In this document: piece after piece, positions 22,053 through 22,870 of the stretch
Position numbering within the stretch: the first letter of the stretch is position 1
Layout of the letters: every line of letters starts with the position of its first letter
Source of the DNA: Clostridiales bacterium
GTDB lineage: Bacteria > Bacillota > Clostridia > Oscillospirales > JAAYOS01
Length of the DNA: 34,002 nt
Direction: 5' to 3'
Assembly: GCA_012520195.1 (NCBI GenBank)
Contig: JAAYOS010000046.1
Coordinates: 1-34,002 of the forward strand
Made by a program: the position numbers and the translations under genes
Notes under the pieces: generated by a model
What the model saw: the letters and a program-made list of their open reading frames with translations, nothing else
Told to the model about the DNA's origin: nothing
Databases searched by the model: none

Positions 22053-22551
22053 ATCCTTCCCCCTCCTGCATCAGGTTTTCCAGCTTAATTATCTCGTCTA
22101 TCACCGGCCACGAGATCAGATCATTTGCGGCCTCTTCGGTTAACGCATGGACTACAAAGCGCCCCGTTTCAGGATCTGTATCCACTGTAATCGTGCCTGG
22201 TGGGAGTGTAATCATATTGGCCAGAAGTACCCTCCCCCATCCGGTCTTGATTGCAGGCGTGATATCAACAATGACAGGACGTGCCGGTGGTTTTGAAAAC
22301 AAAACAGTTTTGGCCACATCAATGTTGCCCTTAATGATATTTACTATCAGCAATACTAACAGCCGTCCCGCTTGCCTTAACGCTCTAGCTGAAGGGATCC
22401 TGGGAATTCGATGGCCTGTATCCACCCAAAACCAAACGGTTATTGATGCAAAAACCGCACCAAAAATGACGTGCTGAATGTCCACGTTATCAGATATTGC
22501 TAACCAAAAAGCAAAAAGTATTATAAAAAGTATAATAGAGCGCCTGCGCAT
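21955..22551 (-). CDS. mrpE: Mrp antiporter subunit E (MrpE/MbhA)
   Basis: 198 aa; FWLAISDNVDIQHVIFGAVFASITVWF, LLANMITLPPGTITVD, FVVHALTEEAANDLISWPV. Confidence 0.9.
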   Translation of the reverse strand: MRRRSIILFIILFAFWLAISDNVDIQHVIFGAVFASITVWFWVDTGHRIPRIPSARALRQAGRLLVLLIVNIIKGNIDVAKTVLFSKPPARPVIVDITPAIKTGWGRVLLANMITLPPGTITVDTDPETGRFVVHALTEEAANDLISWPVIDEIIKLENLMQEGEGYAVDSRRDDNPDSISVSASDNRADGHRPPRLD

Positions 22552-22660
22552 AGTAGTATCCTCCTCCCAAATATTTACCAGTATTCTGTTTTTGCACCAA
22601 CCCCAAGGAGTACGACATCTAGTAATCTAGTGGTCAATTTTAGCATTAATTTTTGGTTCG

Positions 22661-22702
22661 AAAAAAAGCGCAATGTCAAGTGAAGTTCTTGACACAACGC
22701 TT
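22661..22702 (-). terminator. Intrinsic terminator, likely riboswitch expression platform
   Basis: Minus strand: AGCG-TTG-TGTCAAG-AACTTCA-CTTGACA-TTG-CGCT-TTTTTT; 7-bp and 4-bp stems followed by a T-run, right after the aptamer. Confidence 0.85.
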
Positions 22703-22703
22703 G

Positions 22704-22813
22704 GTACTCCTACGAGGTTAGCTGACGGGTTCGGGCATCCAAGTTCCCTACCTTTTACACAGGATTCACCCCAAAATTGGTTCCCCCGCTCCATATTTTG
22801 AATTCGGAGATAG
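22704..22813 (-). ncRNA. ydaO/yuaA-type c-di-AMP riboswitch aptamer
   Basis: Minus strand reads ATCTCCGAATTC...GGAGCGGGGGAACCAATTTTGGGGTGAATCCTGTGTAAAAGGTAGGGAACTTGGATGCCCGAACCCGTCAGCTAACCTCGTAGGAGTAC. The core strings GGGGTGAATCC, GTAGGGA, GCCCGAACCCGTCAGCTAACCTCG match the remembered ydaO consensus. Confidence 0.92.
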
Positions 22814-22842
22814 GTTTTATAAGGCAATATTGCCTCCATTCA

Positions 22843-22870
22843 ATAATATCATAACACCCCTTAAAGTCAA
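22843..22870 (-). promoter_or_regulatory. Promoter of the riboswitch/mrp operon (extended -10)
   Basis: Minus strand TTGACT (22865-22870), 16 nt spacer, TATTAT (22843-22848), with TGA immediately upstream of the -10 (TGn extension). Confidence 0.7.

What the first reader, a model, noticed from the sequence alone, without database searches (positions are those of the whole stretch)
22551..22870. c-di-AMP (ydaO-type) riboswitch controlling an Mrp/Mbh-type cation antiporter operon
Seen: on the minus strand a TTGACT-16-TGATATTAT promoter, a near-consensus ydaO/yuaA aptamer, a terminator hairpin with T-run (22661-22702), then GGGAGGAGG and the mrpE start at 22551, all co-oriented. Established: the ydaO class binds c-di-AMP, generally switches expression off, and commonly controls K+ and osmolyte transport or cell-wall genes. 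Inference: high c-di-AMP would terminate transcription of a whole multi-subunit Na+(K+)/H+ antiporter complex, linking c-di-AMP to proton/sodium-motive force and pH as well as K+ uptake. I do not know whether this exact pairing has been described.
Basis: partly seen in the sequence, partly recalled or inferred. Interest (0 to 1): 0.85.

Follow-up and report, generated by a model that had tools for sequence, protein, structure and literature searches.

The report
c-di-AMP riboswitch before Mrp antiporter operon
A known type of RNA sensor for the bacterial signal molecule c-di-AMP sits in front of a ten-gene Na+(K+)/H+ antiporter operon; the same arrangement, often with an extra anion-transporter gene, recurs in about thirty other uncultured Bacillota genomes, so c-di-AMP very probably controls this ion pump.

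Summary
RF00379 (c-di-AMP/ydaO) hits window 22819-22693 minus at 89.6 bits (gathering 38; E 6e-20), full length. A terminator (22702-22666, U-run to 22661; -17.8 kcal/mol, z -5.3) and a Shine-Dalgarno follow, then mrpE at 22551 and nine more Mrp/Mbh subunit genes. The upstream gene has its own terminator. The pairing is not a one-off. Of 43 relatives of this MrpE in named genome records, 32 carry an intact RF00379 hit upstream of mrpE; one more is masked, three have a decayed aptamer with the terminator kept, three are cut by contig ends, and four lack it. In 22 a SulP transporter gene lies between (two more hold remnants). Direct placement, as here, is scattered over the MrpE tree, so SulP was probably lost repeatedly while the riboswitch stayed. 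The leaders share a rewired loop-tail helix (CTTGG:CCAAG, exact in 30 of 31) fused to the terminator base. An OFF switch is the best reading, because every tested ydaO member I could read about is OFF, but the sign is not shown by sequence. No paper in the held library links this riboswitch to Mrp; two key ydaO papers were not available. New member of a known kind.

The parts
22843..22870 (-). sigma-70-type promoter-like site, TTGACT (22870-22865), 16 nt, TGA-TATTAT (-10 at 22848-22843)
   Evidence: consensus match only, not above chance by itself, but correctly placed
22693..22819 (-). c-di-AMP (ydaO/yuaA) riboswitch aptamer, complete
   Evidence: RF00379 89.6 bits, E 6.2e-20; pairs counted over 31 homologous leaders
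22739..22743 (-). CTTGG in the aptamer hairpin loop: 5' strand of the loop-tail (docking) helix
   Evidence: alignment A2, 30 of 31 leaders with exact CTTGG/CCAAG; general ydaO covariation
22700..22704 (-). CCAAG tail: 3' strand of the docking helix, overlapping the terminator base by AAG
22661..22702 (-). intrinsic terminator: stem 22702-22666, U-run 22667-22661
   Evidence: -17.8 kcal/mol, z -5.3; same AAGCG..CGCTTTTTT terminator in nearly all homologous leaders
22597..22613 (-). GTACTCCTTGGGGTTGG, complementary to the 3' half of the aptamer (22721-22704); function unknown
   Evidence: duplex energy -32.2 kcal/mol, 0 of 200 shuffles as good
22560..22568 (-). Shine-Dalgarno GGGAGGAGG
   Evidence: read from sequence
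21955..22551 (-). MrpE/MnhE subunit (198 aa)
   Evidence: PF01899 3e-29
21741..22052 (-). MrpF
   Evidence: PF04066 7.9e-9
21437..21748 (-). MrpG
   Evidence: PF03334 3.9e-19
21154..21432 (-). MbhD-like (MrpA C-terminal part)
   Evidence: PF13244 2.5e-16
20868..21164 (-). MbhE-like (MrpA C-terminal part)
   Evidence: PF20501 4.1e-8
20431..20871 (-). MrpB
   Evidence: PF04039 2.7e-23
20058..20462 (-). MrpC
   Evidence: PF00420 6.5e-21; NCBIfam antiporter subunit C models
18559..20061 (-). MrpD-like antiporter subunit
   Evidence: PF00361 2.7e-56
17071..18519 (-). second MrpD-like antiporter subunit
   Evidence: PF00361 8.2e-53
15057..17039 (-). MrpA/HyfB-like antiporter subunit (660 aa)
   Evidence: PF00361 1.2e-56, PF00662; best NCBIfam hydrogenase 4 subunit B
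22905..22955 (-). terminator hairpin of the upstream aldo/keto reductase gene (insulates the riboswitch unit)
   Evidence: -29.1 kcal/mol, z -5.2; followed by a T-rich stretch

Best explanation
The element is a genuine c-di-AMP (ydaO class) riboswitch with a transcription-terminator platform that heads its own transcription unit and controls a complete Mrp/Mbh-type monovalent cation/H+ antiporter operon. Shown: aptamer, terminator, operon and evolutionary conservation of the link. Inferred: c-di-AMP binds; when c-di-AMP is high the aptamer folds, its hairpin loop CTTGG docks on the tail CCAAG, the adjoining terminator forms and transcription stops before mrpE; when c-di-AMP falls (osmotic or Na+ stress, K+ shortage) RNA polymerase reads through and the antiporter, in most relatives together with a SulP transporter, is made.
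For: Full RF00379 hit far above gathering; aptamer helices kept over 31 leaders, with changes on both sides at six pairs of the whole structure against 1.6 by shuffling; strong terminator with U-run, conserved in nearly all leaders; intact RF00379 hit upstream of mrpE in 32 of 43 related loci, the rest mostly masked, cut or decayed; riboswitch kept in 8 lineages without SulP, scattered over the tree, so mrp itself is a target; a diadenylate cyclase domain is encoded in the same genome; every tested ydaO riboswitch found in the papers is OFF: kdp (PMC6488665), Dehalobacter ablA (PMC9337991), nlpC and the B. subtilis prototype (PMC9960051); imposing the aptamer fold frees the CCAAG tail and terminator arm in ViennaRNA ensembles, mean unpaired 0.48 to 0.78 and 0.41 to 0.56; a docked tail costs the terminator only 1.4 kcal/mol if CCAA is used.
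Against: No ligand or termination experiment. No clear conserved antiterminator was found: the unbound fold of the window leader still forms the terminator. The docking helix overlaps the terminator base by 3 nt (4 kcal/mol if CCAAG is used), which could mean the opposite sign. Only close relatives of this MrpE were surveyed; most Mrp operons in the class sample are not seen with the riboswitch.
Confidence: 0.8

Rival explanations
1. The riboswitch is functional but works as an ON switch: c-di-AMP-stabilised docking of the loop CTTGG on CCAAG weakens the terminator base, so high c-di-AMP turns the antiporter on to export K+ or Na+.
For: The docking tail is fused to the terminator base in 30 of 31 leaders, unlike the general ydaO leaders, whose purine-rich tail is separate. 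If CCAAG is docked the terminator loses about 4 kcal/mol on average. In SulP-type leaders a downstream segment complementary to the aptamer 3' half overlaps the SulP Shine-Dalgarno, which would hide it when the aptamer is unfolded. From general knowledge, c-di-AMP activates K+ exporters.
Against: All published members found are OFF. Docking of CCAA alone costs only 1.4 kcal/mol and the stem still abuts the U-run. In the window the downstream complementary segment does not include the SD.
Confidence: 0.12
2. The hit is a decayed or neutral riboswitch remnant; mrp is expressed independently of c-di-AMP.
For: Three relatives keep the terminator but have lost the aptamer core, so decay does occur in this group. 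The genus-mate lacks the whole unit.
Against: The window aptamer keeps the invariant core and scores 89.6 bits, within the 87-103 range of the others; no alternative promoter-like site before mrpE.
Confidence: 0.05
3. The contig is a binning error, so the pairing does not belong to this genome.
For: Close relatives in the order lack similar MrpE and mostly lack RF00379.
Against: The Glu/Gln-tRNA synthetase-type gene (Pfam tRNA-synt_1c) on the same contig shows the expected gradient: 74% in the genus-mate, 60-63% in the family, about 50% in the order; neighbouring genes (aldo/keto reductase and the next gene upstream) match the genus-mate at DNA level. The pairing recurs in other genomes anyway.
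Confidence: 0.03

Closest known systems
ydaO/yuaA c-di-AMP riboswitch (Rfam RF00379), terminator type, e.g. B. subtilis kimA and B. thuringiensis kdpFABC
   Same: Complete aptamer with all conserved helices, followed by an intrinsic terminator before the first gene of an ion-transport operon
   Different: Target is a multisubunit Mrp cation/H+ antiporter rather than a K+ importer; the loop-tail helix is CTTGG:CCAAG and shares its tail with the terminator base
Na+-I/c-di-AMP tandem riboswitch of Dehalobacter ablA (PMC9337991)
   Same: c-di-AMP aptamer plus terminator in front of a salt-adaptation gene in an anaerobic Bacillota
   Different: No Na+ aptamer here (only one Rfam hit); gene is a Na+(K+)/H+ antiporter rather than an osmolyte enzyme
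Mrp/Mnh/Pha (CPA3) antiporters and the antiporter module of Mbh/Mbs complexes
   Same: Subunits E, F, G, B, C, D and the Mbh-like split of MrpA into MbhD and MbhE plus an antiporter-like large subunit
   Different: No hydrogenase or sulfane-reductase subunits among the window ORFs scanned; two D-like subunits; under a c-di-AMP riboswitch
SulP/SLC26 anion transporters (PDB relatives 5da0 and 6ki1)
   Same: SulP with STAS domain is the first gene after the riboswitch in 22 relatives
   Different: Missing in the window; substrate untested

Membership tests
c-di-AMP riboswitch RF00379 | Covariance-model score at or above gathering (38 bits) over the whole model | tested here: met
   89.6 bits, model 1-134
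c-di-AMP riboswitch RF00379 | Conserved core (GGGGTGAATCC, CCGTCAGCTAACC) and P1 and long-range helices | tested here: met
   alignment; these helices 98.9-100% paired in 31 leaders
c-di-AMP riboswitch RF00379 | Loop-tail helix found in other ydaO leaders | tested here: met
   own loop and tail pair better than crossed ones in 27 non-mrp leaders; the mrp set has its own version
c-di-AMP riboswitch RF00379 | Binds c-di-AMP | not testable with these tools
   needs in-line probing or ITC
ydaO OFF switch with transcription terminator | Intrinsic terminator after the aptamer, before the first gene | tested here: met
ydaO OFF switch with transcription terminator | Ligand promotes termination | not testable with these tools
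   only inferred from published members and from folding trends
ydaO OFF switch with transcription terminator | Alternative antiterminator pairing in the unbound RNA | tested here: inconclusive
   no universal antiterminator found
Mrp/Mbh-type cation/H+ antiporter operon | Subunits A (split), B, C, D, E, F, G together in one direction | tested here: met
   same order in related loci
Mrp/Mbh-type cation/H+ antiporter operon | Na+ or K+/H+ antiport activity | not testable with these tools
   needs vesicle or complementation assay

The most novel reading that the evidence does not exclude
A ydaO variant with a rewired docking helix fused to the terminator and a downstream anti-aptamer segment that can also cover the first gene's ribosome-binding site, so that c-di-AMP switches the SulP-Mrp operon ON, or sets it at two levels, the reverse of all members known to me.
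Probability: 0.12. Interest if true: 0.75.

Novelty: new member of a known kind. Interest (0 to 1): 0.45.

Why it matters
It would bring Na+(K+)/H+ antiport, and in most relatives a SulP anion transporter, under direct c-di-AMP control, joining sodium and proton gradients to the K+/osmolyte regulon. Because the link is conserved over many uncultured Bacillota, it says what one major ion pump is probably for in these cells (salt and osmotic adaptation) and gives a ready set of natural variants to test the sign and wiring of ydaO switches.

Tried and rejected
Mis-binned contig: rejected through the tRNA-synthetase identity gradient. Chance hit: rejected. Tandem Na+ riboswitch: no second Rfam hit. 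CAAC:GUUG extension of the docking helix as antiterminator: by eye in alignment A2 it pairs in some leaders and fails in others; not counted formally and not supported. Upstream ACGT pairing with the terminator arm as antiterminator: seen in many relatives but missing in the window. Phylum-wide intersection of MNHE and RF00379 places gave no further pair, but the riboswitch list is cut at about 98 bits, so this says little. Nelson 2013 and Block 2010, the two papers most likely to list target genes, are not held, so priority cannot be fully checked.

Full report
Check of the observation. The minus strand holds, in order, a promoter-like TTGACT-16-TATTAT (22870-22843), a complete RF00379 match (22819-22693, 89.6 bits, gathering 38, E 6.2e-20), a terminator (stem 22702-22666, U-run to 22661, -17.8 kcal/mol, z -5.3), GGGAGGAGG and an ATG at 22551. 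The promoter match alone is at chance level. The upstream aldo/keto reductase gene ends at 23002 and has its own strong terminator (22955-22905; -29.1 kcal/mol, z -5.2), so the riboswitch heads a separate unit. No minus-strand promoter-like site was found between the terminator and mrpE.

The operon. Ten co-directional genes follow: MrpE, F, G, MbhD-like, MbhE-like, MrpB, MrpC, two MrpD-like and a 660-aa MrpA/HyfB-like protein. This is the Mbh-like layout in which MrpA is split. No hydrogenase subunits were seen among the window ORFs scanned.

The genome. The contig belongs to the genome: a class I Glu/Gln-type tRNA synthetase gene on it is 74% identical to that of the genus-mate, 60-63% in the family and about 50% in the order, and genes just upstream of the riboswitch match the genus-mate at DNA level. 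At the matching place after the aldo/keto reductase gene the genus-mate has neither riboswitch nor mrp, and no MrpE was found in its 94% complete genome, so the unit was probably gained or lost as a whole. A diadenylate cyclase domain (PF02457) is encoded. The genome has one other RF00379 hit, before a DppD/OppD-like ABC ATPase.

Conservation. An alignment of 30 MrpE relatives found 43 loci in named genome records, mostly uncultured Bacillota MAGs. RF00379 is present above gathering (86.9-102.8 bits) on the same strand upstream of mrpE in 32. Of the other 11: L030 is masked by N with the platform still visible; L037, L042 and L044 keep tail and terminator but have lost the aptamer core; L025, L045 and L051 are cut by contig ends; L050, L055, L056 and L057 lack it. 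In 22 of the 32 a full SulP gene (PF00916 plus STAS; PDB relatives 5da0 and 6ki1) lies between riboswitch and mrpE, in 2 only fragments, and in 8 none. The Mrp gene order is the same in these loci. On the MrpE tree the direct arrangement is scattered (9 changes needed for 9 rows), which fits repeated loss of SulP with the riboswitch kept; repeated SulP insertion is the alternative. This survey covers relatives of this MrpE only. In a sample of 394 genomes of the class, 115 had RF00379 and 56 had MNHE, and in the printed lists 7 MNHE places including the window have the riboswitch within 2 kb upstream; the other six seem to be loci already in the set, since contig lengths agree. The riboswitch list was cut at 150, so this is a lower bound.

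The platform. In 31 aligned leaders the aptamer helices other than the two-pair helix 4 are 98.9-100% paired. In 27 ydaO leaders outside this group, the same hairpin loop pairs with the tail 3' of P1 (e.g. CTCTTTC:GAAAGAG, CCTATTT:AAATAGG), and own pairs beat crossed ones. In the mrp group this helix is CTTGG:CCAAG, with mean own energy -8.1 kcal/mol against -2.9 and -4.1 for crosses between the two groups. Its tail is fused to the terminator base (AAGCG..CGCTT). In two non-mrp leaders the tail contains the Shine-Dalgarno (L096, L098), which agrees with a review that groups ydaO with docking switches that hide the RBS (PMC10907184).

Sign. Published members that I could read about are OFF switches (PMC6488665, PMC9337991, PMC9960051). 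Folding trends point the same way but weakly: imposing the aptamer fold frees the tail (0.48 to 0.78 unpaired) and the terminator arm (0.41 to 0.56) on average. Docking of CCAA costs the terminator 1.4 kcal/mol and of CCAAG 4.1 on average, so docking and termination can coexist, but the overlap leaves room for an ON switch. No universal antiterminator was found. I therefore call OFF likely, not shown.

An unexplained extra. After the terminator, the window has GTACTCCTTGGGGTTGG (22613-22597), complementary to 22721-22704 in the 3' half of the aptamer (-32.2 kcal/mol for the wider duplex, 0 of 200 mononucleotide shuffles as good). Several SulP-type leaders have a different but analogous segment (TTGGTACCACTAC..ACGGGGTG) that includes the SulP Shine-Dalgarno. 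Own pairings beat crossed ones (p 0.0005 by permutation), but relatedness was not controlled. It might lock read-through RNA in a non-sensing fold or add translational control.

Biology. Other ydaO leaders in the Clostridia sample precede genes that read, from sequence, as dapB-like, ablA-like (lysine-2,3-aminomutase), acetyltransferase, Opp/Dpp and cell-wall type (names by my reading of the translations, not by a family search). Mrp thus would join an osmotic-adaptation regulon: with low c-di-AMP under salt or osmotic stress, Na+ export (and SulP anion transport in relatives) would rise along with osmolyte production. This is inference.

Novelty. No paper in the held library was found that names Mrp as a target of a c-di-AMP riboswitch, but Nelson 2013 and Block 2010 could not be read. 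It is a new, well-conserved target for a known riboswitch class, with a platform variant.

Noticed in passing
window 22613-22597: Segment downstream of the terminator complementary to the 3' half of the aptamer; analogous segments in SulP-type relatives overlap the Shine-Dalgarno. Function unknown.
   Followed up: partly
L037, L042, L044 upstream of mrpE: The ydaO aptamer core is lost but tail and terminator are kept: decaying or uncoupled riboswitches before mrpE.
   Followed up: partly
L087, L088 (G218:C4, G121:C1): An RF00379 riboswitch before a lysine-2,3-aminomutase-like gene lies about 3.9 kb downstream of mrpE on the same strand, so ydaO neighbours mrp without preceding it.
   Followed up: no
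L029 against L027: A contig filed as Chloroflexota carries a riboswitch-SulP-mrp locus nearly identical to one from Bacillota; probably mis-binned.
   Followed up: no
L001, L005: The second ydaO riboswitch of this genome and one of its genus-mate precede a DppD/OppD-like ABC transporter ATPase gene.
   Followed up: partly
window 14118-15011: An EamA-family transporter gene starts about 45 nt after the last Mrp gene on the same strand and may be co-transcribed.
   Followed up: no
L050 (Alkaliphilus sp. NP8), upstream of mrpE: No RF00379 hit, but a terminator-like hairpin with a long U-run lies shortly before mrpE, possibly another attenuator.
   Followed up: no
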